From: Riemerella columbina DSM 16469
Lineage (GTDB): Bacteria > Bacteroidota > Bacteroidia > Flavobacteriales > Weeksellaceae
NCBI RefSeq assembly: GCF_000374405.1
Contig: NZ_KB894262.1
Span: forward strand, 1 to 64,000
DNA: 64,000 nt
Direction of reading: 5' to 3'
Below the pieces are notes generated by a model. That model ran no database searches, had not been told where the DNA came from, and was given only the letters and a program-made list of their open reading frames with translations. Made by a program: the position numbers and the translations under genes. Within the stretch, counting starts at the first letter, position 1. Every line of letters starts with the position of its first letter. This document shows positions 13,850-37,986 of the stretch, piece by piece.

Positions 13850-15328
13850 ATGAAACAATTAATATATTTATTTTTAGGATTAAGTCTTTTATCGTGTAAC
13901 CGATATTTGGACGAGACGCCGGACTCTAAGTTGGATATTGAAATAGATTCGGAAGATAAAATTGCAGAATTGCTTACAGCGGCTTATCCTAGAGCGAGTT
14001 ATTTCCCGTTTTTGGAAGCGATGTCTGATAATACGGAGCGTGTAGACAATGGTATCCATACCCGTTTGAACGATGCTATGTACCATTGGCAAGATTTTGA
14101 ACAAGAGGATTTAGATACACCACTTAACTATTGGAATGATGCTTACAGAGGTATCGCACAAGCCAATCACGCATTGGAATACCTTAAAAAATTTCCTAAT
14201 AAAACCAAAAGAGTTAAAGCCCTGTATGGCGAGGCACTTTTGCTAAGAGCCTACTTGCACTTTATGCTGGTTAATATTTGGGCAGAAGCGTATAGTCCCA
14301 ATTCTGATGCTAAAGGCATTCCTTATGTAACCAAACCCGAGAGAAATGCAATTCCAGAATATAAACGACTAAGCGTTCAGGAGGTTTATGACCATATTGA
14401 AGAAGATTTGTTGCTTGGTATAGCAGCTTTGGACGACCAATATTATAAGGTGCCGAAATACCATTTTACCAAAAAATCTGCCTATGCTTTTGCAGCGAGA
14501 TTCTACCTCTATAAAGGCGACTGGGAAAAAGTTTTGGTATATTCTAATTATGTTTTAGAAGACAATCCGAGGGTGCTCATCAGAGATTGGGCGAATAAAT
14601 ATGAGAAGCTCAATACCACGCCAGATTTAATTCCGCAAGTCTATTCTTCCGTAGATGAGCCTGCCAATTTGCTTATTACCACCACACAATCTCGGTGGAA
14701 ACGAGATTTAGCCCGACTAAAATATGCCATGGGCGAAGGGCTTAAAAAAGACCTTTTTGCCAGCTTTGCACCTAAATATTCTGCCTCGTTTTGGTATTGG
14801 AATCTAACCCAAGGCAGCACTACAGGCAACCGCTTTATCAATAAATTTACGGAACTCCAAAACTTCCAAGAAACGGGCAGCAACCCTCGGGAGGTTTATG
14901 TTCCTAATATTTTATTCACAACAGATGAAGTATTGCTTAACCGTGCTGAAGCCTACACGATGCTCAAAAGATATGATAAAGCCGCGAATGATATTCTGAT
15001 TTTTATGAGTCTTAAATCGCAGAAAACATTCATCAAAGATGAGTTACTGGTGGCCTTTCAAAATGGGCATGAGAACTATACACCGTTCTATCCGCTGACC
15101 TTTTACCAAGGTTCGTTGGTCAATACCATTGCTGAACTCAGAAGGCGAGAGTTTGTCCACGAAGGGCTCCGCTGGTTTGACATCAAACGCTTCTATCTCA
15201 CCGTGAATAGAAATCAAGCTGGAGATGCCTATGACCTCAACAAAATCCTGAGAAAAGAAGATGAAAGAAAACTTTTACAAATTCCTCTACAAGCTCAAAA
15301 ACTGGGCATAGAGCCTAACCCAAGATAA
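13850..15328 (+). CDS. SusD/RagB family substrate-binding lipoprotein
   Basis: This 492-residue surface lipoprotein forms the lid of the SusC transporter. The lipobox Cys is residue 16 (SLLSC), followed by NRYLDETPDSKL, a common SusD start. TPR-like helices hold the ligand site. RAYLHFMLVNIWAEAY (about 137-152), the NEVLLNRAEAY-type motif EVLLNRAEAYTML, and the late ELRRREFVHEGLRWFDIKR match RagB/SusD. It is cotranscribed with SusC (16-base gap) and with the putative metallohydrolase 9 bases downstream. No sugar-degrading genes lie nearby, so the ligand may be a peptide, metal complex or other nutrient. Confidence 0.93.
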   Translation: MKQLIYLFLGLSLLSCNRYLDETPDSKLDIEIDSEDKIAELLTAAYPRASYFPFLEAMSDNTERVDNGIHTRLNDAMYHWQDFEQEDLDTPLNYWNDAYRGIAQANHALEYLKKFPNKTKRVKALYGEALLLRAYLHFMLVNIWAEAYSPNSDAKGIPYVTKPERNAIPEYKRLSVQEVYDHIEEDLLLGIAALDDQYYKVPKYHFTKKSAYAFAARFYLYKGDWEKVLVYSNYVLEDNPRVLIRDWANKYEKLNTTPDLIPQVYSSVDEPANLLITTTQSRWKRDLARLKYAMGEGLKKDLFASFAPKYSASFWYWNLTQGSTTGNRFINKFTELQNFQETGSNPREVYVPNILFTTDEVLLNRAEAYTMLKRYDKAANDILIFMSLKSQKTFIKDELLVAFQNGHENYTPFYPLTFYQGSLVNTIAELRRREFVHEGLRWFDIKRFYLTVNRNQAGDAYDLNKILRKEDERKLLQIPLQAQKLGIEPNPR

Positions 15329-15337
15329 AACCTCATT

Positions 15338-16249
15338 ATGAAATATACCCTATTATCCATTTTTGTTTTTTCATTATTGTTGTGTGCGTGTAACTCTCGC
15401 GAGGAACTTAGCACAGAGTCCGTCCTCATCAGTGAGATTAAGCATACCGATAGCTTAGACCAATGGCTCTACCAGACATATACTAAGCCTTATAATATTG
15501 AGGTAAAATACCGCTGGGATGCCAATGCCACAGGGCTCACACAGACCACCACGCCACCTACACGCGAGCAAGTGAAACCTGTTATGCAAGCCGTTAACCA
15601 ACTTTGGATTGAGGTTTATGAAAAGTTAGTAGGAAAGGATTTTTTAAAACGCTATGCTCCAAAGGAAATCTATCTTTATGGTGGGAAAAACTTAGATACA
15701 GAAGGTTATGAGCAAATTAAAAGCACCCACGCACCCTTGCAAATGCCTTTATTTAAAATCAATGATTTCAAAGAATCAGATTCGGCTTCTGTAGCCCAAG
15801 TGATGAGAATGGTACACCATCACTTTGCCAAAGCGCTTATTCAACAAAAGCCTTTCGATAAGGAGGCATTTTCTCAACTCAATTTCTACGCTTATAAAGA
15901 TAATTGGGGTAAACTTTCGCCTAACGATCTCTACCATCTTACCACCCGCGCTTCGGATTTTGGATACTATAGCCTCTTGGCAGCCAGAGGCGGTGTGGAA
16001 GAAGATTTTGCAGAAACTGTAAGCACGATGCTTTGCAATACCAAGCAAGATGTAGACTATATGATTTACGACTACGCAGGCTATATAGATCCTTATAACC
16101 CTGATGACAAAGAGCGTGCCCAAAAAGCAGTAAAAACCTTAACGAGCAAAAGGGAATTTGTCATTAAATATTTTAAAGATAATTTTGATATCAACTTTAA
16201 TCGTTTACAATTTGAAAGTAATGCCCAAATCAAAACTTATCTAAAATAG
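15338..16249 (+). CDS. SusCD-associated metallohydrolase-like lipoprotein with degenerate HExxH
   Basis: The 303-residue lipoprotein (lipobox Cys 18) resembles the substrate-import-associated zinc metallohydrolase lipoproteins (TIGR04549-like, gluzincin Peptidase_Mx1 clan) that sit beside SusC/SusD in Bacteroidota. In typical members the active-site helix reads like HHEFAHILHQ. Here residues 160-169 read HHHFAKALIQ, so the catalytic Glu and the downstream zinc His residues appear replaced (His162, Lys165, Ile168). The later EEDFAE motif at 221-226 is kept. The fold is probably retained but zinc hydrolysis is doubtful, so it may act as a binding protein. It lies in the operon between SusD (9-base gap) and DUF4302 (30-base gap). 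Confidence 0.75.
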   Translation: MKYTLLSIFVFSLLLCACNSREELSTESVLISEIKHTDSLDQWLYQTYTKPYNIEVKYRWDANATGLTQTTTPPTREQVKPVMQAVNQLWIEVYEKLVGKDFLKRYAPKEIYLYGGKNLDTEGYEQIKSTHAPLQMPLFKINDFKESDSASVAQVMRMVHHHFAKALIQQKPFDKEAFSQLNFYAYKDNWGKLSPNDLYHLTTRASDFGYYSLLAARGGVEEDFAETVSTMLCNTKQDVDYMIYDYAGYIDPYNPDDKERAQKAVKTLTSKREFVIKYFKDNFDINFNRLQFESNAQIKTYLK

Positions 16250-16279
16250 CGACTATAGCTTTATTAAAACTTTGGAACA

Positions 16280-17191
16280 ATGAAAATTTATATTTATTAT
16301 ATTATCGGTGCTTTTTTATTACTACAATCTTGTAGGGATAAAGAAAAAAATATCTACACAGAAACGCCTTTTCGAAGGGCTCAAAATAGAATTCTAGAAT
16401 TAAGAAACGAGTTGGTAAATGCTGAAGACGGCTGGCTGATGACTTACTTTCCAGATGTAGATACACTAAAGTTTTCTGACCCGACTAAAAATATCAAAAC
16501 TTGGGATAATGCAATTTATTTTCTAAGTCGTGAATTTGGAAAAGGGGGGTATCAATTTTATATGAAGTTTAATGATAAAGGGAAGGTAGAAATGCTTTCC
16601 GATTCGGATTATAATAATTCTAATGTCATTAAAACAAGTGATTTTGAAGTAAAACAAAGCACTTATACCCAATTGAGTTTTACCACGCAAAACTATATTC
16701 ATCAACTATTAAAAAGTGATTTTCTGTTTTGGAAAAAAGATGAAGACGGAAGATTGATTTTTAGAACCAATAATTATGTAGAGGAGGGGAGAGAGTATAT
16801 TGTATTAACAAAAGTACATTTGGAAAATCATAAGCCAGAAGAATTGATGTACGAAACTTATCGCCAAAAATTTACTTTTGAAAGACTATATAATCCGCAA
16901 TTAACCATCAAAGATAGCGAAGACGGCATACAATTTAAAAGTAATTTGCAAACTAGAAAACTAAGTACAGAAGAGCGATATACTGTATTTGTTAAAAACT
17001 GGCAACCCAACTTATACAATAGTTCTTACTATTCGGGCTTAGGTTCGGGCTATATGCCTACGGAAAAGGGATTGCTTTTTTACCCAGGAATTAAGCTAAA
17101 AGATGGAGTTGTCTTTAGAGAATTTATAAAAGTAGGAAATGTGTACAAAGCCAGTGCAGGAGGTTATGCCGCAGAAATTACACCCAATTAA
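16280..17191 (+). CDS. DUF4302 family lipoprotein
   Basis: This 303-residue lipoprotein has its lipobox Cys at residue 18 (LLLQSC). It matches the DUF4302 pattern, including RAQNRILELRNELVNAEDGW near the N-terminus (in parts RILELRNEL and NAEDGWLMTYFP), the FLSREFGKGGYQFYMKFNDKG strand region and a DFLFWKKDEDGRLIF segment. The family has no known activity and is typically encoded beside SusC/SusD and putative metallohydrolases. It is beta-rich and presumably surface- or periplasm-facing. It belongs to the SusCD operon, with 11 bases to the next gene. Confidence 0.8.
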   Translation: MKIYIYYIIGAFLLLQSCRDKEKNIYTETPFRRAQNRILELRNELVNAEDGWLMTYFPDVDTLKFSDPTKNIKTWDNAIYFLSREFGKGGYQFYMKFNDKGKVEMLSDSDYNNSNVIKTSDFEVKQSTYTQLSFTTQNYIHQLLKSDFLFWKKDEDGRLIFRTNNYVEEGREYIVLTKVHLENHKPEELMYETYRQKFTFERLYNPQLTIKDSEDGIQFKSNLQTRKLSTEERYTVFVKNWQPNLYNSSYYSGLGSGYMPTEKGLLFYPGIKLKDGVVFREFIKVGNVYKASAGGYAAEITPN

Positions 17192-17202
17192 AAAATAAAA
17201 AT

Positions 17203-17811
17203 ATGAAAAATATATGGATATTATCCTTATTTGTAGGATTAATGTTTGCAGGATGCAATGAGAGAAGTGAAGATTTGCCAGATGAGGATTACAACGCTTT
17301 ATTTCCTAATAAAGGAAAGATTGATAAACCAGATATTGATTATACCAATATGACGCCTATGGTTTGTGACCCTAAGGAAAATGAAATGAATTTCCAGTAT
17401 CCAGGGGTTGATGTTAAAAAAAATGTAAGAAACTATACCGTAACGCTGAAGTATCAATTTACAGAAACTAAGGCTAATAATATGGGAGGCGATAGTCGTT
17501 CGCAGTTTGATTTGAAATATGTAACTAAAGATAAAACCTTAGTAGTGTTAAGAAGTTATAGTGAAGATGGAAAACCTGCGGATATTGAAAACGGAAAAGA
17601 ATACGAGATGAAGTTTAAAGTAAAATCGGGGTATCCACTTTATCTATCTGTATATGGAGCAGGCTACGACTTATTTAAAATGAAGGCGACCATCCAAGCA
17701 AAATCTGATGATGGCATTGTGGTATCACCAGTGATTAAATATGAAACTTCTTTCTATGCTGATGGATTTACAGAAATGACGCCTTATTGCGAAAAAATAA
17801 TATTACCTTAA
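17203..17811 (+). CDS. Lipoprotein of unknown family in the SusCD operon
   Basis: I do not recognise a family for this 202-residue protein. It has a clear lipoprotein signal with Cys 18 (LMFAGC), an acidic linker (SEDLPDEDYNALFPN), then a predicted beta-sandwich of alternating strands. Two cysteines remain in the mature part (MVCDPKE and PYCEKI), near its two ends, and could form a disulfide. Its place between DUF4302 and DUF4856 implies that it works with the transporter, perhaps as a ligand-binding surface protein. Homology to HmuY-type haem-binding proteins was considered but no clear similarity was seen. Confidence 0.7.
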   Translation: MKNIWILSLFVGLMFAGCNERSEDLPDEDYNALFPNKGKIDKPDIDYTNMTPMVCDPKENEMNFQYPGVDVKKNVRNYTVTLKYQFTETKANNMGGDSRSQFDLKYVTKDKTLVVLRSYSEDGKPADIENGKEYEMKFKVKSGYPLYLSVYGAGYDLFKMKATIQAKSDDGIVVSPVIKYETSFYADGFTEMTPYCEKIILP

Positions 17812-17833
17812 AAAAATAATTAAATAAAATAGT

Positions 17834-18997
17834 ATGAAAAAAAGATTAATTCTTACCTTAATGCTCTCTACGCTAGCCCTTACCTCTTGTTCTAGAGATG
17901 GAGGCGGTGGAGACAATGGTGGTGGTACCAATCCACCCGTAGTTAATGAATCTTACGATTATAAATTTTCTAGAGATGGATTTTCAACCGTAGATTTTAA
18001 AGAAGGTGAAGCCTTAATCAACTTATTTTATAAGTTGGATAATGGATTGAAGAGTGCCAGTAGATTCTCAAAAAACTATTATCAGGAGAAAGGCGTTTAT
18101 GGAAAAAGTCTAGATGATATTACTGCAACATCTATTGGATATTACCTTAAGAATACGACATTGAAAACCGAAGTAAAACAAGATATAGACCATTATTTTG
18201 AGGACTTAGTACTTATCGCAAATGCGAATCAAGAGGCTAAGAAAGGAATCGCAGGTTGGATTGGCTATGATGAAGAAAGACGCTATGTGAATGGCTATGG
18301 AGAGGAGACTGGTCAAGTGCTACAAAAAGCTCTAATGGGTGTGGCATTGCTAGATAGAATCAATAATCATCACCTGAGTTCAGAAATTTTAAATGATGCA
18401 AAACTTCAAAAAGATAATTCTAATATAGTATTAGTTTCTGGTAAAAAATATACTGAATTAGAGCACCATTGGGATATGGCATTTGCCTATTTAGGAAAAG
18501 AAAATTCGTTATATAAACCATTATTTATTGCGAACTATTTAGAAAAAGAAACTAAAGACATGCTTTTTTTAAGAGGAGTGGATGAGCGCGTATATAAGGC
18601 TTACTACAAAGGAAGAAAGGCTGTAGTGAGTCAAAACTATGATGAAATGAAAAACCAAGCCGAAATCATCAATAAAGAACTAGGAACTCTATTTGCAGCA
18701 AGAGCAATTTATTATCTTAAAAAAGCTCTGCCAGACATGAAAGAAGATGCTAGAAATGCATTCCATGGCTTGTCAGAAGCTCAAGGTTTTATTTATGCAC
18801 TTAATTCAATTAGAAAGGCAGATGGTACGCCTTATCTAAGCCACGCTGAAGTTCAGCAGTTGCTTACTGATCTTAGAGGGGCTGGTGGCTTTTGGGATGT
18901 AGACCGATTAGCAGCAAGTAAAAATACCAAAGGATCTTTACTGAATATTTCAGAAAGAATTGCTAATAAATTTGGCTTTAAATCAGAAGATATTTAA
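17834..18997 (+). CDS. DUF4856 family lipoprotein (copy 1, SusCD operon)
   Basis: This 387-residue lipoprotein (Cys 19, LTSC) is all-helical after a Gly/Asn-rich linker. It shares conserved blocks with a second copy at 36613-37779: Y-x-F-x-R-x-G-x-S-x-V-D near residue 45, VNGYGEETGQVLQKALMGVALLD (the VQKxLMG and LLD parts match), ELEHHWDMAF and NAFHGLSEAQGF, then GGFWDVDRLAAS. DUF4856 proteins have no established function. The second copy sits next to imelysin, an iron-associated helical family, which suggests a metal or metal-complex binding role for both. It is cotranscribed with the upstream lipoproteins. Confidence 0.85.
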   Translation: MKKRLILTLMLSTLALTSCSRDGGGGDNGGGTNPPVVNESYDYKFSRDGFSTVDFKEGEALINLFYKLDNGLKSASRFSKNYYQEKGVYGKSLDDITATSIGYYLKNTTLKTEVKQDIDHYFEDLVLIANANQEAKKGIAGWIGYDEERRYVNGYGEETGQVLQKALMGVALLDRINNHHLSSEILNDAKLQKDNSNIVLVSGKKYTELEHHWDMAFAYLGKENSLYKPLFIANYLEKETKDMLFLRGVDERVYKAYYKGRKAVVSQNYDEMKNQAEIINKELGTLFAARAIYYLKKALPDMKEDARNAFHGLSEAQGFIYALNSIRKADGTPYLSHAEVQQLLTDLRGAGGFWDVDRLAASKNTKGSLLNISERIANKFGFKSEDI

Positions 18998-19019
18998 TAA
19001 AATTATAAAATAAAATATT

Positions 19020-19784
19020 ATGAAAAAATTATTACTAATCCCAAGTTTTTTGATGGCATTGCCACTATTTTCACAAAATATCATCACTAATCCAAGTTTA
19101 GAAGAATGGACTGAAGAGTATTACTTTGGAAAATGGGAATACTATCCCACCACATGGATGAAGACCGATGCTATACAATCATCCGACAATCCAAAAGATG
19201 GAAATTACTGTGCCGAGCTCAAAACAGGAAAATATATTAGATTTAGAAATTTATCGGGTATTGAAGCCAATGCAACATATGTCCTCACTTTCTATATTCA
19301 TGATACCAACCCCAATAGAAATATTAGAAGTAGATTGACTTGGTTAAATAACAGTGGAATATCACTAAATTCTGAAGATAATGTTCACGAACAAAACCAA
19401 GCAGGTTGGATCAAAATTGAAAAAGAAATTACCGCACCTAATGATGCAGTAGGTTTTAACCTAAACATCAACACTGATGGTGATATTAATGCTGATGTTA
19501 GTAACTCTATGAAAGTAGATCTATTTAGTTTTGAGAAAAAGGAAAATATGGGTACTCACGAAATTTCTGCTAAAGAGGCTAAAATTTTTGTACAACATAA
19601 AGTATTACACATCACTACAACTCAAAAATCAACGCTGAAAATCATCAATCTTAATGGGCAGACTTTAAAAACTGAAACCGTTAATGGTAATACTGAGGTA
19701 AATGTTGGCGCTTTGCCAAAAGGGGTTTATGTAGTGGTTTTAGAAAGTGCAAAAGGGATATTTTCTAAAAAAGTGATGTTTTAA
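19020..19784 (+). CDS. T9SS-exported protein with carbohydrate-binding-like domain
   Basis: The 254-residue product has a signal peptide (cleavage near SQN at 19-21), then a jelly-roll-like domain (about 22-170) that starts NIITNPSLEEW, a pattern common in extracellular carbohydrate- or ligand-binding modules. The last 75 residues are a type IX secretion C-terminal domain, with LKIINLNGQTLKTETV and LPKGVYVVVL followed by a lysine-rich end. It should therefore be exported and may be attached to the cell surface. It is the last gene of the SusCD operon, 22 bases after DUF4856, and is followed by a terminator at 19816-19850. A role as surface binder for the transported ligand is inference. Confidence 0.8.
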   Translation: MKKLLLIPSFLMALPLFSQNIITNPSLEEWTEEYYFGKWEYYPTTWMKTDAIQSSDNPKDGNYCAELKTGKYIRFRNLSGIEANATYVLTFYIHDTNPNRNIRSRLTWLNNSGISLNSEDNVHEQNQAGWIKIEKEITAPNDAVGFNLNINTDGDINADVSNSMKVDLFSFEKKENMGTHEISAKEAKIFVQHKVLHITTTQKSTLKIINLNGQTLKTETVNGNTEVNVGALPKGVYVVVLESAKGIFSKKVMF

Positions 19785-31088: not shown

Positions 31089-31781
31089 ATGATTATAACT
31101 TTATTAATTTTAAGTGTACTGATAGGAGTGATTTTAGGAAAGTTTCTAGGAGCAAGAGAGTATTTGGCAAAAAATCTATTAATCGTAAGTGCGGGTTTTT
31201 TAATTACGATATGTATTAATGAAGTATTTCCAGAGGTCTATGCAAGTAAGCAGTACAATATAGAATTATTTGTTATTGCTGGGGTTTTGCTTCAAATGAT
31301 TTTAGAAGGTTTAACCAAAGGTTTTGAGCATGGGCATATCCATCACCACAATGAGACTAAACACATTCTACCAATGGCACTGATGGTGGGTATGTTCCTA
31401 CATGCTTTTATAGAAGGGATTCCTTTAGCCCACGAAACTCATTGGAATTCCCCATATTTAATGGGAATTTTGGTGCATAATCTTCCAATTTCTTTTGTGT
31501 TGGGGGCTTATTTGCTTAGTGGCAAATCCTCTAAACGCTATGCATGGACGATTATTGGGTGCTTTGCATTGGCATCACCGCTGGGTTTGGTTTTAGGTCG
31601 ATATTTTGAAATGCAATGGCAACCTTACTTTTTAGCCTTAGTAGGTGGTATTTTCTTACATATTGCTTCGGTTATGATTTTTGAAAGCAATAAAAACCAT
31701 CAGATGGATTGGAAAAAGTTGTCCTTAGTGGCATTAGGAATTTTATTGGCGTTATTAGGGCATTTATTTCATCATCATTAA
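31089..31781 (+). CDS. ZIP family metal transporter
   Basis: This 230-residue inner-membrane protein has about eight membrane segments and belongs to the ZIP family, which moves Zn2+, Fe2+ or Mn2+ into the cytoplasm. The metal-binding helices carry HAFIEGIP and HNLPISF, the expected H-x3-EG and HN motifs. A histidine-rich loop (HGHIHHHNETKH, about residues 79-90) and a C-terminal HHH are likely metal sensors or buffers. It ends at a terminator shared with the convergent TonB receptor gene. Position beside a likely metal-uptake operon is suggestive, though the two are on opposite strands. Confidence 0.9.
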   Translation: MIITLLILSVLIGVILGKFLGAREYLAKNLLIVSAGFLITICINEVFPEVYASKQYNIELFVIAGVLLQMILEGLTKGFEHGHIHHHNETKHILPMALMVGMFLHAFIEGIPLAHETHWNSPYLMGILVHNLPISFVLGAYLLSGKSSKRYAWTIIGCFALASPLGLVLGRYFEMQWQPYFLALVGGIFLHIASVMIFESNKNHQMDWKKLSLVALGILLALLGHLFHHH

Positions 31782-31785
31782 CACT

Positions 31786-31822
31786 AAAAAATCCCATTCT
31801 TTATACGAACGGGATTTTTTTC
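31786..31822. terminator. Bidirectional terminator between ZIP and TonB receptor genes
   Basis: AAAAAATCCC and GGGATTTTTT pair across a 15-base centre and give T-tracts on both strands. Confidence 0.7.
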
Positions 31823-31824
31823 AT

Positions 31825-34080
31825 TTAAAACTTCATTTCTAAAGTCATATAATATTGTCGCGGTGCCGATGGGATAATCCCTGGACCAGGATAACCGGTG
31901 GCTCTTCGGGTAAAGTAGACTTCATTTAATAAATTATTCACTCCAGACTCTACTTTAAAATGTTGATTGATGCGGTAGGATAGGGATGCGTCTAGAATTT
32001 TGTAAGTCGGTATACTTCCGCGAATTCCCCAAACATGATCCGTTTTATCTGTAGGCTCGTTGGTGGCACTGGTAAATTGTTCGGACATATAACTGTATAG
32101 CACGCTACCTAAAAAGTTTTTGTATCCAAAGTTAATCCCTGATTTTAAATTCACCTTTGGTACATATTCCACTTTATTACCTTTAATCCCTGGAATTTCG
32201 GATTTTACATATTCCGAGTGGGTTAGAGCAGTATTAAAAAATATATTCCATTTCCAATCTTCGCTATTGCCGAGAAGCATTTTATTGAGATTAAAATCAA
32301 TTAAAGACTCTACACCAGCAATAAATGCCGCACCGACATTGGTTCGTACTTTGGCAACATCAGAAAATAAGCCTTCTCGCTTACGAAATACATTGTCGAT
32401 ACGGTTGTTGTACCATAGTCCAAAAATATTGATGTCGTAAGAAATATTGTTTTTCCAATTGCCTCTAATGCCTAAATCCCCAGTATAGCCTGTTTCATCT
32501 TTTATATTAGGGTCTATCACTTGGGAATTATTCTCTACACGAATATCACTAAAGGTAACCGAACGGTAGTTTTGGGAAAAGTTGGCATAGCATTCAAACG
32601 CTTTCAATGGTTTGTACGAAATACCTAAGCCTAATAAAAAGAAATTTCTTTGGCGTTGTTCGGCTTCTTGGAAGGTTTTATTTAAAATCACATTACCTGC
32701 ATTATCTTGGATGATACGCTGATATTGACCATCTGTTCCCGTATTAATCCATTCCCATCTTATGCCAGGTACAATAGACCAACTATCGCCTAGCTTAATG
32801 ATATTTTCTGAAAATAACGCTATATTCTTATTAGGGTAGCGATAATCTGACTGGAAAAAATAGTTTTTATTCTGAGAGTCATAGTTGAAATCTGGACCTT
32901 TACCAGTACTACCCGGACCTTGTGTTCCCGTATTGTTGGCTTGGTAATATTTACCACCAATGAGGAAGGTGTGATTGTTTTTGCCGTAATGTTGCAGGTA
33001 TTTGGCTTCGATACCCCAGTTTTTAAAATCCCCCGTAATTAAATCTCTTACCGCACCATCATAGTCACTATCCGCAACTTTGGAAGGACGATAGCCTAGA
33101 GAATATCTGGAAGCATTAAGCCCAAAAGCATTAAGGTTAATTTTAGCACGCTTTGAAAATTCGTGGTCTAATTTTACATTCCATAAATTCCAATCGACAT
33201 GAAACCAGTTTCTAGCTCTTAAACTTTGGTGTGAATCTTGGTAAAACTGAGCATCGGTCAAACCACCCGGCTGGTGAGCCAAGTAATTAAACTTGGTAAG
33301 TTCTGTAGTGATTTTGGTATTATCCGTAATGTCGTAGCCGATATGAGCATAGAAATTTCTAGCGTTATATTCAGAATTTTCTTGGAATCCATCCCCTTGT
33401 TTATAATTGAAATAGGTGTAGTAAGAAACCTTACCTACGGTACCACTTAAAGCATTAAAAGTGGTATGCGTATTAAAACTGGCGTAAGTGTTTCGGCTGG
33501 TTAGTTCAATCGGCTTATTTTTTACGGGTGATTTTAGTTTAAAATTCATCAGTCCGCCAAACTGTGTTCCATATTGTAATGATGCCGCTCCTCTTACAAT
33601 TTGTATTTCGTCTATCGCTTCGGCAGGTGGCGTATAGTAGCTTTCTGGATAGCCCAAAACATCGGCGCTGATATCGTAAGTGTTTTGTCTGGTGTTAAAG
33701 TTGGCCGATCGGTTAGGGTTCAGTCCACGACCACCAATGTTGAGCTGAAGTCCGCCATCGTTACTATCAAACACATTCACGCCAGACACTTGAGAGAAAA
33801 CTTGTCTAGGGTTATTTAAGGCTTTATTAACGATTTTGACATCCATTAAAATTACCTCAGTTTTTTTTGCGGCGAAAATGCTGGTGCCTTCTACCTCTCG
33901 AAGTTTTCGGGATTCAAAAGCGTCTAGTTTTTTCTTAATAAGATGGACTTCTTTTATCTCTTGTACCTTTTCTTGAGCCTGTAAGAAAAATGGAGCGATG
34001 TATAAACTTAGGCTAAAAGCCTTTAATGCTGTCGTGGAACGGCAAAATCCATGTCTTGTGTTGGAATGATTCTTTTTCAT
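31825..34080 (-). CDS. TonB-dependent outer membrane receptor (FecA-like)
   Basis: This 751-residue TonB receptor has a signal peptide ending near QAQ (36), an unusually long positively charged n-region, and a plug with VSGVNVFD, GGRGLNPNRS and EIQIVRGAASLQYGTQFGG. The barrel ends MTLEMKF. It resembles ferric-citrate/siderophore receptors. It is the last gene of a four-gene operon (DUF4856, imelysin, HTTM, this gene). Its start overlaps the end of the HTTM gene by 68 bases. No later in-frame ATG allows a good signal peptide, so the overlap seems real. The ligand is probably an iron or other metal complex, from the neighbours. Confidence 0.9.
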   Translation of the reverse strand: MKKNHSNTRHGFCRSTTALKAFSLSLYIAPFFLQAQEKVQEIKEVHLIKKKLDAFESRKLREVEGTSIFAAKKTEVILMDVKIVNKALNNPRQVFSQVSGVNVFDSNDGGLQLNIGGRGLNPNRSANFNTRQNTYDISADVLGYPESYYTPPAEAIDEIQIVRGAASLQYGTQFGGLMNFKLKSPVKNKPIELTSRNTYASFNTHTTFNALSGTVGKVSYYTYFNYKQGDGFQENSEYNARNFYAHIGYDITDNTKITTELTKFNYLAHQPGGLTDAQFYQDSHQSLRARNWFHVDWNLWNVKLDHEFSKRAKINLNAFGLNASRYSLGYRPSKVADSDYDGAVRDLITGDFKNWGIEAKYLQHYGKNNHTFLIGGKYYQANNTGTQGPGSTGKGPDFNYDSQNKNYFFQSDYRYPNKNIALFSENIIKLGDSWSIVPGIRWEWINTGTDGQYQRIIQDNAGNVILNKTFQEAEQRQRNFFLLGLGISYKPLKAFECYANFSQNYRSVTFSDIRVENNSQVIDPNIKDETGYTGDLGIRGNWKNNISYDINIFGLWYNNRIDNVFRKREGLFSDVAKVRTNVGAAFIAGVESLIDFNLNKMLLGNSEDWKWNIFFNTALTHSEYVKSEIPGIKGNKVEYVPKVNLKSGINFGYKNFLGSVLYSYMSEQFTSATNEPTDKTDHVWGIRGSIPTYKILDASLSYRINQHFKVESGVNNLLNEVYFTRRATGYPGPGIIPSAPRQYYMTLEMKF

Positions 34081-35398
34081 GGGTTAAATCTACATTGGGG
34101 TTGATAAAGGGTTGACTTCTGCGTCCGTTGAGGGCAACATAAACTTCTGCATAAACTTTTGCATTTTTAACACCTCTATTTTTTTCATAATAATCTTTTA
34201 AGTAGTGGGCAAATTGAAGAATGAAATCGGGCTGGAAAGACATCTGCTTTTCCTGTATTGGGGTAAGAAAATCCGAATTTTCTACAATATAATACTCATC
34301 GGTTTCAGGATTATAAATTTTAAACTGGGCATAGCCTGCTTTTTCCATCAGCATCACCCGCCAAGAAAACCGAAATCCTTCCTCCGTCCAAAATAATTCA
34401 CCAGGGTAAAGTAAATATCGCCAAGGAAATAGAATTTGGATGGTAAAGAACACTACTAATACTGCAAATATAGGCTTTTTAAGATGCTTGGGCAATTGAT
34501 AAATCTCATGGTTTTGATACTTTTTAGGATTTAGTTTTAAATATCGGTATAGTGAGTTCCACAATTTTTGATGCCAAGATGGGGAAAAATAAATGGTAGC
34601 ACCAAACATCATCACAAATGGAAAAATACCAATAGGAAATAATACCCAAGTTAAAGTATGGAAAACTACCACACTAATGAAAGCAAGTAAGCGGGTACGC
34701 TGGTTCCATAGCAAAAAAGGAATGCTTAAATCGTACAATGCCCCAGCCCAAGAAAATACATAGGCAGTAGGCGTTTTGTCTAGCCATTCGCCAATAATAG
34801 GCAAATAAAATTTGGAAGGTAGCCATAATTTAAGCGGCATCGCATCAACTAACCAATCTGAGTTAAGTTTACAAATCCCTGCATAAAAATAAATAATGGC
34901 CACTAAAAGTTTGATAACATTAACACACCAAGCAGGAACTAATTCTTTTCTTAGTGATGGATTTTTTTCTGCATCTACGGAATAAGCCACATTCATTGGT
35001 AGAAAAATCATCAAAAAACTTAGAATACTGATAAAGTAATAGTGGTTGAGGTAGTTGGTTTTGTCCATCAATTCAATATAAGTGAAGGTGAGGAAAAAGC
35101 CTACAATAGCAAAACGATAATATCGCCCAATCATAATTAAAAAAGCGAAAATACCCGCTAATGCAAAAAATCCGTAAGTGTATTGCCCTAAAGGTTTTAC
35201 CCACTCAAAACCGTAATAACTAAAGAAAAATTGAGGTTGTATATAAAGGCTATCAATCCAGCCATAAACAAAAAATCGACTGATACTGATGAGCATCAAT
35301 ATACCAAAAAACAGCCTATAAGTGCTCAGAACGGAGGCACTTATAGGTTGCTTTAACAATTGATATTTAAATGATTTAGTCACCATCGGTATCTGCAT
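34013..35398 (-). CDS. HTTM protein, full-length vitamin K-dependent gamma-carboxylase homologue
   Basis: This 461-residue membrane protein aligns by eye with vitamin K-dependent gamma-glutamyl carboxylase along its whole length. The HTTM part has several membrane segments. Residues 110-119 read LMDKTNYLNH, matching the region of the catalytic-base Lys (Lys218 in the human enzyme, here Lys113). FYAGICKLNSDW (171-182) and FHTLTWVLFPIG (246-257) match conserved helix segments, and SWRVML (345-350) lies in the vicinity of GYSWDMMV. VYVALNGRRSQPFINPNVDL (419-438) matches the C-terminal LNGR...DPxVD block. It overlaps the imelysin gene by 23 bases. An ATG four codons further in (35386) would shorten that. 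Substrate and activity are unknown. Confidence 0.85.
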   Translation of the reverse strand: MQIPMVTKSFKYQLLKQPISASVLSTYRLFFGILMLISISRFFVYGWIDSLYIQPQFFFSYYGFEWVKPLGQYTYGFFALAGIFAFLIMIGRYYRFAIVGFFLTFTYIELMDKTNYLNHYYFISILSFLMIFLPMNVAYSVDAEKNPSLRKELVPAWCVNVIKLLVAIIYFYAGICKLNSDWLVDAMPLKLWLPSKFYLPIIGEWLDKTPTAYVFSWAGALYDLSIPFLLWNQRTRLLAFISVVVFHTLTWVLFPIGIFPFVMMFGATIYFSPSWHQKLWNSLYRYLKLNPKKYQNHEIYQLPKHLKKPIFAVLVVFFTIQILFPWRYLLYPGELFWTEEGFRFSWRVMLMEKAGYAQFKIYNPETDEYYIVENSDFLTPIQEKQMSFQPDFILQFAHYLKDYYEKNRGVKNAKVYAEVYVALNGRRSQPFINPNVDLTHEKESFQHKTWILPFHDSIKGF

Positions 35399-36539
35399 AA
35401 GATATGGTAATATTAAGCGATTGTGCCATATCCACTTTTAAATGTGGTACATTTTTTTGCAAGTTATAATACGCATTTTTTAGTTTATTCAAGTCTTGTG
35501 TAATTTGAACTTGGAAATTTGGATTTAAGGCTTGGATTGCCGTTTCCGCTTGCGTAAATTGGTTATTGATATCTTGGGCTAATGTTTTATGGTTACTATT
35601 TTTAGTCGCCATATACTCTATGTATTGCTGGAATGATTTTCCCGTTTTACCATCCGCTCCGATACCTTGGAAAAATTCATGCATTGCTTTAGTGCCTAAT
35701 AAGGCATATTCTCTATTGTGCTGAGGGGAAAATTGAGACTCTACCAAATGAGGTTTTGGTTGGTCGTTATCCTCTAAGAACATTGGGGTTAAAATCCCTG
35801 CGGGATAACCAATTTTACCTGCTCTTAAATATTTTTCATAATATTGAACATAGGCATTAGCAACTAAACTGACACTTCCAGAAGCGTTATTCCCTGTGTT
35901 ATTAATAAATGATTGGCGGTTGGCTTTTAGGTCTGCTAACATTTCTTTTGATGAAACCACCATTTCTTTGGTAACTTCATAAAGGTAATCTTTATAATGT
36001 TGTGCATTAGTATTGGTGGTATATTTTTCAAGAATAGCTTGGTCGTTATCTCCGAAACCATTTAGTAAATAATCTACCGCTGGTAAGCCTTGTGCAATAC
36101 TACCCTGATTAATTTGTGATAATAATCTAAATTGATAGTTCTTTTCTACGGCATTAGATTTTATTTTATCGGTATTGGTTGGATAAGTATTTAATCGGTA
36201 TTGATAGTTCATATCACTAGCATCTGCTTTTCCAAAACGATAGAATCCTATGTATTGGTAGGCTTTATAAGCCTCATGTAGTGCCGTTCTAGCTGCATTA
36301 AGGTTAGCCTCGTTTGGATTGGCATTAAAGGCTTTAGTTTTTTCTTCTAGTGCAGTAGCTGCATCAGAAAATTTTTGGTTGTAAGGAATGACAAAATCGT
36401 CTACCCAGTGGGTTAGCATGGCAGTTCTATCAAAGCCATCTCCTTTGTTTTCTGGTTCCGAAGATACAGTACTATCGCCACCACAAGAGGTTACAAAAAG
36501 TAATAATCCTAATAGTAAGCTTAAAGAGTAATATTTCAT
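35376..36539 (-). CDS. Imelysin family lipoprotein
   Basis: This 387-residue lipoprotein (Cys 19, LLFVTSC) is an imelysin-like helical bundle of the M75/COG3489 periplasmic type, a family linked to iron uptake. The family motif GxHxxE reads GLPAVD at residues 151-156, so the His is replaced by Pro and the Glu by Asp; a GLPAxE/D form is common in the COG3489 branch. The C-terminal half contains LLGTKAMHEFFQGIG. The start was moved from 36578 to the ATG at 36539 because the lipoprotein signal begins there. It lies 73 bases after DUF4856 and overlaps the HTTM gene. Confidence 0.85.
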   Translation of the reverse strand: MKYYSLSLLLGLLLFVTSCGGDSTVSSEPENKGDGFDRTAMLTHWVDDFVIPYNQKFSDAATALEEKTKAFNANPNEANLNAARTALHEAYKAYQYIGFYRFGKADASDMNYQYRLNTYPTNTDKIKSNAVEKNYQFRLLSQINQGSIAQGLPAVDYLLNGFGDNDQAILEKYTTNTNAQHYKDYLYEVTKEMVVSSKEMLADLKANRQSFINNTGNNASGSVSLVANAYVQYYEKYLRAGKIGYPAGILTPMFLEDNDQPKPHLVESQFSPQHNREYALLGTKAMHEFFQGIGADGKTGKSFQQYIEYMATKNSNHKTLAQDINNQFTQAETAIQALNPNFQVQITQDLNKLKNAYYNLQKNVPHLKVDMAQSLNITISYADTDGD

Positions 36540-36612
36540 GATATTTTGTATTAGCACAATACAGTCTTGAAAACTCAAGACTGTATTGTAAAGTTATTGA
36601 TTTGAATGTTGA

Positions 36613-37779
36613 TTACGGCTTAGTATAGTCAAATCCATACTTATCACCAATCATCTTCGCATAATATTTTAATGAACCTGCTTTAGATACATCACCAGAC
36701 AATCTGTCTACATCCCAAAGTCCTTTTTTACCTTTTACACCATTGAATACAGCTTTAGCTTCTGCAGGAGTTAAATATCTGCTTCCGTCTTTCTTTCTAG
36801 TAAATTGTAGTCCATAAACAAAACCTAAACCTTCAGATAATCCGTGGAAAGAGTTGGTTGGATTATTAGGATCGATTTTAGTATTCAAGTAGTGTACTGC
36901 TCTAATCCCAGCCACTAAAGACAATTTTTCGCGGATGATTCCTGCTTGCTCATTCATTACTTTGTAATCTTTAGCAGAAGCCGCTGCACGACCTGTTCTA
37001 AAGGCTAGCATAATCGCTTCTTTAATACCTTTAGTTTCTGGCATATCTGTTAATTCTTTTGAAAGGTATCCAGCCCAGAAAGATTCTACTCCTTCAGGTT
37101 TTGTAAGACCTAGTAATCCATAAGCTGTGTCCCAGTGTAGTTCTAGTTCTGTTTCATTAGTTCCAGAAACTAAAGTTTTTTTGTTATTAGCTTCTAGTAT
37201 AGCACTGTTTTTTAGCACTGCATCACCAAGGTGTTGGTTGAAGATTTGGTCTAATAGTACAGCACCCATCAAACCTTTCTGTACGATTTGAGAATATTCT
37301 ATTCCGTAACCGTCAACCATTCTTTTGCCACCTAGAGTACCTGCTGTGCCCTCTTTCGCTTTGTCGTTTTTATGAGCGGCAGCATCATCTGCTAGGCTTA
37401 CTAGATAGTCATTAAAGAATTTTTTTGCTGCTACAGTTTCCTCATTTCCACTATTGAAGTAGTCTTGAGATGCGGCAGTTAATTCTTTTAAACTTTTTGC
37501 GTCATTACCTTTATCATTATATAAAGCTAATAAGTCTGCTTTTACAATATTTTTAAAATCTCTTGCGCTATTGTCTAGAGCTTTTAATTTAAGATAAGGC
37601 TGATGTCCTAAAGTTAGATCAACAGAAGATTTTCCATTTCTTTCAAAAGTATAATCCGAAGGTACAGTGTACGGATCTGGATTTACTGGTGTGTTAATGT
37701 CATCATTATTGTTACTGTTACAAGAAACAAAAAGTGCGGCAGAAGCCATCACAGGCAAAATTGCTTTAGTAATTTTCAT
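36613..37779 (-). CDS. DUF4856 family lipoprotein (copy 2, imelysin operon)
   Basis: This 388-residue lipoprotein (Cys 20, LFVSC) is the paralogue of the protein at 17834-18997. Shared blocks are YTFERNGKSSVDL, GYGIEYSQIVQKGLMGAVLLDQ (in parts), ELELHWDTAYGLLG, NSFHGLSEGLGFVYGL and KGLWDVDRLSG. It is helical throughout and probably periplasmic. It heads the operon that continues with imelysin, HTTM and a TonB receptor, which is the best clue to function (uptake of a metal or its complex). A TATATTTG on the minus strand at 37813-37820 drives the operon. Confidence 0.87.
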   Translation of the reverse strand: MKITKAILPVMASAALFVSCNSNNNDDINTPVNPDPYTVPSDYTFERNGKSSVDLTLGHQPYLKLKALDNSARDFKNIVKADLLALYNDKGNDAKSLKELTAASQDYFNSGNEETVAAKKFFNDYLVSLADDAAAHKNDKAKEGTAGTLGGKRMVDGYGIEYSQIVQKGLMGAVLLDQIFNQHLGDAVLKNSAILEANNKKTLVSGTNETELELHWDTAYGLLGLTKPEGVESFWAGYLSKELTDMPETKGIKEAIMLAFRTGRAAASAKDYKVMNEQAGIIREKLSLVAGIRAVHYLNTKIDPNNPTNSFHGLSEGLGFVYGLQFTRKKDGSRYLTPAEAKAVFNGVKGKKGLWDVDRLSGDVSKAGSLKYYAKMIGDKYGFDYTKP

Positions 37780-37812: not shown

Positions 37813-37820
37813 CAAATATA
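37813..37820 (-). promoter_or_regulatory. TAnnTTTG -7 element of the DUF4856-imelysin-HTTM-TonB operon
   Basis: On the minus strand TATATTTG lies 33 bases ahead of the ATG at 37779, and a TTTGG about 18 bases further upstream fits the -33 element. No Fur-like palindrome was recognised. Confidence 0.65.
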
Positions 37821-37986
37821 TATTTATTTTGATTTATTCCAAATAGCAAAGCGAATTTTTTAGTTAAAACTGATGAATATCAGTAAAGGATTTAGAGGAA
37901 GTGAGAAGGAAATTTTTTGTAATCTGTTATTAATGAGAGTTTTTTGTTGTGTTGGTTGTGAGGTTTTACATTCTTATAAAAAATAC

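What the first reader, a model, noticed from the sequence alone, without database searches (positions are those of the whole stretch)
31825..37779. Operon with a full-length vitamin K-carboxylase homologue between imelysin and a TonB receptor
Four minus-strand genes (DUF4856, imelysin, HTTM, TonB receptor) share one promoter and overlap. The HTTM protein keeps the regions that align with human gamma-glutamyl carboxylase from the catalytic-base Lys (here Lys113 in MDKTNYLNH) to the C-terminal LNGR...NPxVDL block. Gamma-carboxyglutamate is made with reduced vitamin K in animals, and a Bacteroidota could use menaquinone. Linking it to metal-uptake lipoproteins raises the idea that Glu residues in imelysin, DUF4856 or the receptor are carboxylated to bind metal. 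I know of no defined substrate for such a bacterial operon. The substrate link is speculation; the homology is read from the sequence.
Basis: partly seen in the sequence, partly recalled or inferred. Interest (0 to 1): 0.8.

Follow-up and report, generated by a model that had tools for sequence, protein, structure and literature searches.

The report
Vitamin-K-carboxylase relative in iron-uptake operon
A bacterium carries, inside an operon that looks made for capturing iron, a close structural relative of the human vitamin-K enzyme that activates clotting factors, with the known catalytic residues intact, which makes it testable whether bacteria also carboxylate proteins and why.

Summary
The observation largely holds. 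Window 34013-35398(-) encodes a 461-residue relative of human gamma-glutamyl carboxylase (GGCX): Pfam HTTM plus VKGC lumenal domain, phmmer 2e-41, model matching GGCX at Z 29 over 439 residues, best other chain 7.2. The base K218 is window K177; K218, N159 and H160 are kept in 157 of 157 bacterial homologues. DUF4856, imelysin, VKGC and TonB receptor stand together in 75 of 80 close loci and 50 of 77 VKGC loci from a phylum sample; operon-type VKGCs form one clade. A Fur-box-like site lies on the promoter; in Riemerella anatipestifer a receptor-VKGC-imelysin set rises 2-3 fold on iron limitation (PMC5609570). Best reading: an iron-regulated uptake system in which VKGC, driven by menaquinol and O2, carboxylates a partner lipoprotein. 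Reaction and substrate are inferred: no acidic imelysin residue is specific to VKGC operons, and VKOR does not co-occur (16/68 versus 56/228). The imelysin type is found elsewhere beside a di-haem oxidoreductase; here VKGC seems to take that place.

The parts
37813..37844 (-). Promoter with Bacteroidota-type -7 TATATTTG (37820-37813) and -33 TTTGG, overlapped by a Fur-box-like palindrome at 37826-37844
   Evidence: 3 mismatches to the published Riemerella Fur box; 3 such sites in 64 kb, 0.32 expected, none of 100 shuffles with 3.: promoter-like site 37842-37815, but 24 promoter-like sites were found where 24.4 are expected, so this scan alone says nothing. Bacteroidota -33/-7 consensus recalled; PMC5609570 mentions -33 and -7 elements
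36613..37779 (-). DUF4856 lipoprotein, 388 aa (lipobox Cys20); differs from relatives at several near-invariant positions (window E209, L214, T218, L222 for Y, H, E, Y)
   Evidence: (PF16148 E 1e-85)
36555..36590 (-). 16-pair hairpin between DUF4856 and imelysin; a hairpin at this place is common in relatives
   Evidence: dG -22.2, z -6.8; z below -3 in 41 of 76 loci; 0 of 76 at the imelysin/VKGC junction, 0 of 76 inside DUF4856, 2 of 74 after the receptor
35376..36539 (-). Imelysin-type lipoprotein, 387 aa, lipobox Cys19; IPPA/PA4372 type: GxHxxE histidine replaced (GLPAVD), C-terminus DGD
   Evidence: (PF09375 1.5e-23), (Z 34.2 to 7xrx, 31.5 to 3pf0)
34013..35398 (-). VKGC homologue, 461 aa; base K177 (= human K218), Glu pocket N118/H119, quinone pocket F246/F254/F259/W182
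31825..34080 (-). TonB-dependent receptor, 751 aa, start overlaps the VKGC end by 68 bp; its cargo is not known
   Evidence: PF00593 1.1e-32; PF07715 1.8e-6; all NCBIfam matches lie below their cut-offs
31786..31820 (-). Terminator-like hairpin with U run after the receptor gene
   Evidence: dG -17.5, z -4.0; not listed by the terminator scan

Best explanation
An iron-regulated outer-membrane metal-acquisition operon: two lipoproteins (DUF4856, IPPA-type imelysin), a TonB-dependent receptor, and a membrane-bound VKGC. Shown: VKGC fold; conserved base, Glu-pocket and quinone-pocket residues; conserved operon. Inferred: VKGC takes electrons from menaquinol, uses O2 to make the strong base (and menaquinone epoxide), and with CO2 carboxylates an acidic residue of a partner protein as it passes through the periplasm, giving a malonate-type metal ligand. 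The most likely partner is the imelysin or DUF4856. VKGC would thus fill the place that a di-haem oxidoreductase (DHOR) holds beside the same imelysin type elsewhere.
For: VKGC lumenal domain and HTTM; GGCX 2e-41 over residues 13-454; model Z 29.0, rmsd 3.4, 439 aligned, the 16 top rows all GGCX. K218, N159, H160, W223, G259, F286 and F299 equivalents in 157 of 157 homologues; in human GGCX K218 is the base, and N159, H160 and Y395 hold the Glu (PMC12589487, passages read). All four genes in 75 of 80 and 50 of 77 loci. DUF4856 and VKGC co-occur: 46 of 50 DUF4856 genomes have VKGC against 68 of 296 overall, Fisher p 3e-32, not corrected for kinship. MenD present. Iron-limitation ratios 2.1-3.1 for the Riemerella genes. 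Four imelysins of the same type stand beside DHOR; the window's genome has no DHOR match. Precedent for redox modification of a metal-binding partner: CorA/MopE kynurenine, for which the authors suggest MauG-like neighbours (PMC3912023, passages read).
Against: No VKOR match in the window's genome and no association with VKGC (16 of 68 against 56 of 228, p 1.0), so the epoxide would need another reductase or would be lost. No acidic imelysin residue is found only with VKGC: DGD and, in three of four, E235 are shared with DHOR-linked copies; only K368 (138 of 138 against 1 of 4, and K also in 3pf0) and G244 (133 of 138 against 0 of 4) lean towards VKGC. K217, N158 and R436 of human GGCX are replaced (C176, L117, Q385), and Y395 is Phe in the window. 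Two Roseivirga loci have DUF4856+VKGC apart from imelysin+receptor, and that imelysin has neither VKGC nor DHOR beside it. One genome (L158) keeps an operon-type VKGC without any partner beside it. The match to GGCX ends near human residue 512-517 of 758. The Fur effect in Riemerella is small (1.36-1.93) and the paper's Fur-box table, as far as I saw it, lists no box for RAYM_09779-09794.
Confidence: 0.5

Rival explanations
1. VKGC works as a quinol oxygenase/epoxidase or membrane redox partner of the uptake system (for example for iron redox cycling or O2 handling) and does not carboxylate protein.
For: Base and most quinone-pocket residues are invariant, while some GGCX substrate-side residues are changed in operon members (L117 and T250 in 137 of 137, V348 in 136 of 136 read, Q385 in 124 of 137). 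No VKOR. The Leptospira relative has been reported to have altered activity without a carboxylation role (Rishavy 2005, recalled, not read). The DHOR partner elsewhere is also a redox enzyme.
Against: The Glu-holding N159 and H160 are invariant too (157 of 157), and the lumenal substrate-binding domain is kept, which a pure epoxidase would not need. [quoted passage not shown]
Confidence: 0.22
2. VKGC is an active carboxylase, but its substrate is another envelope protein, the receptor, or a small molecule such as a metallophore, and the operon only shares its iron regulation.
For: No VKGC-specific acidic residue in the imelysin. Non-operon VKGCs exist without the lipoproteins, so other substrates must exist for that branch.
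Against: The 16 non-operon VKGCs fall outside the clade of the 142 operon-type sequences and keep human-like N290 (16 of 16) and M401 (12 of 12 read, 4 gaps) where the operon type has T and V, so they are a separate line.
Confidence: 0.2
3. The protein has lost catalysis and is an assembly or anchoring factor for the lipoproteins.
For: GGCX contact residues K217, N158 and R436 are replaced.
Against: K218, N159 and H160 never vary in 157 loci, which is not expected of a dead enzyme.
Confidence: 0.08

Closest known systems
Human gamma-glutamyl carboxylase GGCX
   Same: Fold (Z 29), sequence (2e-41), base K218, Glu pocket N159/H160, quinone pocket F286/F294/F299
   Different: 461 residues against 758; no match beyond about residue 512-517; K217 to C, N158 to L, N290 to T, M401 to V, R436 to Q; no VKOR in the genome
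Riemerella anatipestifer RAYM_09779-09794 (iron/Fur-responsive set, PMC5609570)
   Same: TonB receptor, vitamin K-dependent gamma-carboxylase and imelysin lipoprotein in this order; a R. anatipestifer locus (L002) has VKGC 74%, receptor 80% and imelysin 60% identical
   Different: In L002 a further gene stands between DUF4856 and imelysin, and the group follows directly on a DUF4856-containing module; in the window a similar module is a separate unit at 13.9-19.8 kb
IrpA/ICMP imelysin - DHOR - IPPA/PA4372 imelysin operons (Xu 2011, PMC3143127, passages read)
   Same: Same imelysin type with GxHxxE histidine lost and C-terminal DGD; iron-related setting
   Different: VKGC and a TonB receptor instead of DHOR and the HxxE-type imelysin; DUF4856 added
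CorA/MopE with MauG-like di-haem partner (PMC3912023, passages read)
   Same: Theme only: metal-binding surface protein beside an oxidative enzyme suggested to modify it
   Different: No sequence relation claimed; copper, kynurenine, not Gla

Membership tests
VKGC/GGCX family | HTTM domain plus VKGC lumenal domain | tested here: met
   249 and 207.9 bits, cut-offs 27.7
VKGC/GGCX family | Catalytic base K218 and Glu-pocket residue H160 | tested here: met
   K177 and H119; 157 of 157 homologues
VKGC/GGCX family | Overall fold | tested here: met
   Z 29.0; but model segments 115-117 and 337-350, which hold active-site residues, have pLDDT below 50
VKGC/GGCX family | Carboxylase and epoxidase activity | not testable with these tools
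   needs enzyme assay
Vitamin K cycle of animals | VKOR recycles the epoxide | tested here: not met
   no match in the window's genome; no association in 296 genomes
Vitamin K cycle of animals | Source of naphthoquinol (menaquinone pathway) | tested here: met
   MenD 357.9 bits over cut-off 244.2; other men genes not searched
IPPA/PA4372-type imelysin | Imelysin fold | tested here: met
   Z 34.2 (7xrx), 31.5 (3pf0)
IPPA/PA4372-type imelysin | Histidine of GxHxxE lost; C-terminal DGD | tested here: met
   motif kept in 1 of 136 operon copies, DGD end in 135 of 136 (one has a further S); 3pf0 ends DGD. That DGD marks the type is my inference; Xu 2011 passages name only the lost histidine
Imelysin-DHOR iron system | DHOR enzyme present | tested here: not met
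   no PF06537 match in the window's genome
Iron-regulated (Fur) operon | Fur box at the promoter | tested here: inconclusive
   16 of 19 match on the promoter; binding not tested

The most novel reading that the evidence does not exclude
Bacteroidota make gamma-carboxyglutamate (or a like-carboxylated acidic residue) in an iron-capturing lipoprotein with a menaquinol-driven VKGC, as a quinol/O2 counterpart of the di-haem enzymes that accompany the same imelysins elsewhere; protein gamma-carboxylation would then be a working bacterial modification for metal uptake.
Probability: 0.4. Interest if true: 0.85.

Novelty: new variant of a known kind. Interest (0 to 1): 0.62.

Why it matters
As far as I recall, Gla is established in animals and no bacterial protein substrate is known. 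The operon gives an enzyme with intact catalytic residues, fixed partner genes, a likely inducing condition (iron limitation) and a quinone supply, so the question whether bacteria carboxylate proteins can be put to a direct mass-spectrometry test. It also suggests a simpler setting for the enzyme than the vitamin K cycle: no VKOR.

Tried and rejected
Rejected: C-terminal DGD and Glu235 of the imelysin as VKGC-specific marks. They looked specific (135 of 136 operon copies end in DGD, 0 of 21 HxxE-type copies), but four DHOR-linked copies and 3pf0 share DGD, and three of the four share E235. That control is small (4), and all four come from genomes that also have a VKGC.

Rejected: the two Roseivirga loci as proof that imelysin is dispensable; imelysin and receptor lie elsewhere in both genomes. 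They are, however, exceptions to 'this imelysin stands beside VKGC or DHOR'. L158 (G108) remains a VKGC without operon partners; its genome keeps a DGD imelysin beside DHOR. Some partial imelysin matches were not looked at.

Rejected: VKOR as partner. Rejected: one promoter as a general rule. Rejected: the T run after the hairpin as a mark; TTTTT is in 56 of 76 stretches, 45.8 expected, so 33 of 41 says little.

Weak lead, not claimed: DUF4856 Glu161 and Glu316 are invariant in 114 rows and each kept in 2 of 4 copies from VKGC-free genomes; those copies are distant, so this may be mere divergence.

Rows dropped or miscounted: one truncated imelysin (L063) was left out before profile building; three VKGCs (by their gaps L015, L029, L038) were cut short by a start-codon error of mine and recovered. 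The counts treat contig-edge cases (such as L063, L067, L147, L176) like the rest. Of the nine phylum loci with imelysin and receptor but no DUF4856 hit, L154, L155, L171 and L172 have an upstream lipoprotein that looks DUF4856-like to my eye, so 50 of 77 may be low; L147 and L178 have DHOR upstream instead. Alignment A1 had a clipped first row and was replaced by A3. The 80 loci were chosen by closeness to the query, and the 80 and 77 loci may overlap in species. Fisher tests ignore kinship. The DHOR tally (14 with VKGC, 8 without) uses only 22 of 50 genomes, picked by hand for high-scoring matches.

Literature: ten searches. One paper holds both the phrase 'vitamin K-dependent gamma-carboxylase' and 'imelysin' (PMC5609570). 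Most subscription papers are not held, so absence there says little.
Full report
What is there. Four genes lie head to tail on the minus strand: a DUF4856 lipoprotein, an imelysin-type lipoprotein, an HTTM/VKGC membrane protein and a TonB-dependent receptor. The imelysin start is best put at ATG 36539, which gives a lipobox ending in Cys19 (read from the sequence). The genome is 2.44 Mb, 99.99% complete by the tool's estimate.

The VKGC claim. Both Pfam domains are matched far over their cut-offs. phmmer against solved structures gives human GGCX at 2e-41 over residues 13-454 of 461. An AlphaFold2 model (mean pLDDT 83.7, pTM 0.85) aligns to GGCX with Z up to 29.0 over 439 residues; the 16 best rows are all GGCX and the next chain has Z 7.2. 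Two segments that hold active-site residues (115-117, 337-350) are low confidence in the model.

Catalytic residues. [quoted passage not shown] N159, H160 and Y395 hold the Glu; F286, F294, F299, H160, V210, M401 and W223 line the quinone ring pocket. In the window these are K177; N118, H119 and F342; F246, F254, F259, H119, I169, V348 and W182. Across 157 loci (80 from genome contigs, 77 from the phylum sample; the window itself not counted) K218, N159, H160, W223, G259, F286 and F299 never vary. Differences from human: K217 is A in 153 of 157, N158 is L in 147 of 157, R436 is Q in 124 of 137 operon loci, N290 is T in 137 of 137 and M401 is V in 136 of 136 read operon loci.

Two kinds of VKGC. 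In a sample of 296 genomes of the window's phylum (taken to be Bacteroidota) 68 have the lumenal domain, with 78 copies. I fetched 77 of them, all but the window's own. Fifty have DUF4856, imelysin and receptor in place; nine more have imelysin and receptor; one, at a contig edge, shows only the receptor; 17 have none of the three, one of them (L158) of operon type by sequence. Of the 80 genome-contig loci, chosen by closeness to the query, 75 have all; in one of these (L002) another gene lies between DUF4856 and imelysin. In a tree of 158 bacterial sequences and human GGCX, the 142 operon-type ones, window included, form one group (local support 0.85); the other 16 lie outside. Ten of these 16 have an upstream neighbour of 302-313 residues; in the four that I scanned it is riboflavin kinase/FAD synthetase, ribF. 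The 16 keep human-like N290, the ten ribF-type ones also N158. DUF4856 occurs in 50 genomes, 46 of them with VKGC. Imelysin occurs in 70, 61 of them with VKGC; the seven VKGC genomes without imelysin have only non-operon copies.

Iron link. PMC5609570 (one section and passages read) lists TonB receptor, vitamin K-dependent gamma-carboxylase, imelysin lipoprotein and a hypothetical gene of R. anatipestifer (RAYM_09779 to 09794) with ratios 2.11, 2.64, 3.07 and 2.41 on iron restriction, and 1.90, 1.39, 1.93 and 1.36 for the fur mutant over wild type with iron. The fur effect is small, and its Fur-box table, as seen, has no entry for these four. The abstract of that paper prints another box sequence than its results. 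I did not fetch that strain's sequence; identity with this operon rests on names, order and a R. anatipestifer locus with the same genes (L002). In L002 the module with SusD-like, peptidase, DUF4302 and DUF4856 genes appears to run on through one more secreted protein into the imelysin (one search shows its last part; the module itself was identified in the window). By locus-tag steps RAYM_09824, whose promoter bound Fur in EMSA, may head that module; this is inference. In the window a Fur-box-like site lies at 37826-37844 on the promoter.

How it may work. [quoted passage not shown] The operon imelysin is of the IPPA/PA4372 type: the GxHxxE histidine is lost (1 of 136 keeps a match), the chain ends in DGD (135 of 136), and it folds as imelysin. 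Copies of this type that I looked at stand beside VKGC, or in four cases beside DHOR, or in two Roseivirga genomes beside neither. L178 has DHOR, imelysin and VKGC together, and L147 a DHOR fragment at the contig edge. The window's genome has no DHOR match. I therefore read VKGC as the oxidative partner enzyme of this imelysin here. A precedent for an oxidative enzyme suggested to modify a metal-binding partner is CorA/MopE. The chemistry of GGCX then suggests carboxylation of an acidic residue to a malonate-type metal ligand. This last step is inference.

Against it. VKOR, which recycles the epoxide in animals, is missing and not associated with VKGC. No acidic imelysin residue is found only with VKGC once DHOR-linked copies are compared; K368 and G244 lean that way. 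The window's operon DUF4856 differs from relatives at near-invariant positions, among them Y209, H214, E218 and Y222; a second copy at 17834-18997 keeps three of these four. So in this genome the operon copy may be degenerating or specialised.

Regulation inside the operon. A hairpin between DUF4856 and imelysin is strong in the window and has z below -3 in 41 of 76 loci, against 0 of 76 at the imelysin/VKGC junction, 0 of 76 inside DUF4856 and 2 of 74 after the receptor. A TAnnTTTG motif follows in 46 of 76 (12.8 expected from dinucleotide shuffles; 4 and 2 of 76 at two coding control places). Many relatives thus seem to start a second transcript before the imelysin.

Verdict. Real, conserved and well placed for test; the enzyme is a variant of a known family in a setting that, among the papers held, I found only as rows of one table. 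The substrate and the reaction are open.

Noticed in passing
window 17834-18997 (+), within 13850-19784: A second DUF4856 lipoprotein in a run of genes with SusD-like, zinc metallo-peptidase (PF15890), DUF4302 and C-terminal sorting (PF18962) matches; in R. anatipestifer (L002) a DUF4856 gene and a secreted protein run directly into imelysin-VKGC-receptor, and in L227, from a genome without VKGC, a similar run stands alone.
   Followed up: partly
window 36555-36590; 41 of 76 related loci: Strong hairpin between DUF4856 and imelysin, conserved in place but not in sequence, often with a downstream -7-like motif.
   Followed up: partly
L153, L163, L179, L180: Non-operon VKGC directly after ribF, in L163 and L179 overlapping it, with K218 and H160 kept; nothing suggests its substrate.
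   Followed up: partly
L226, L231, L232, L233 and PDB 3pf0: IPPA-type imelysins end exactly in Asp-Gly-Asp, an unusually fixed free C-terminus whose role is unknown.
   Followed up: partly
L158 (G108): Operon-type VKGC left alone where L141 has the whole operon between flanking genes of the same lengths.
   Followed up: partly
window 31089-31781 (+): ZIP-type metal transporter gene right behind the operon, on the other strand.
   Followed up: no
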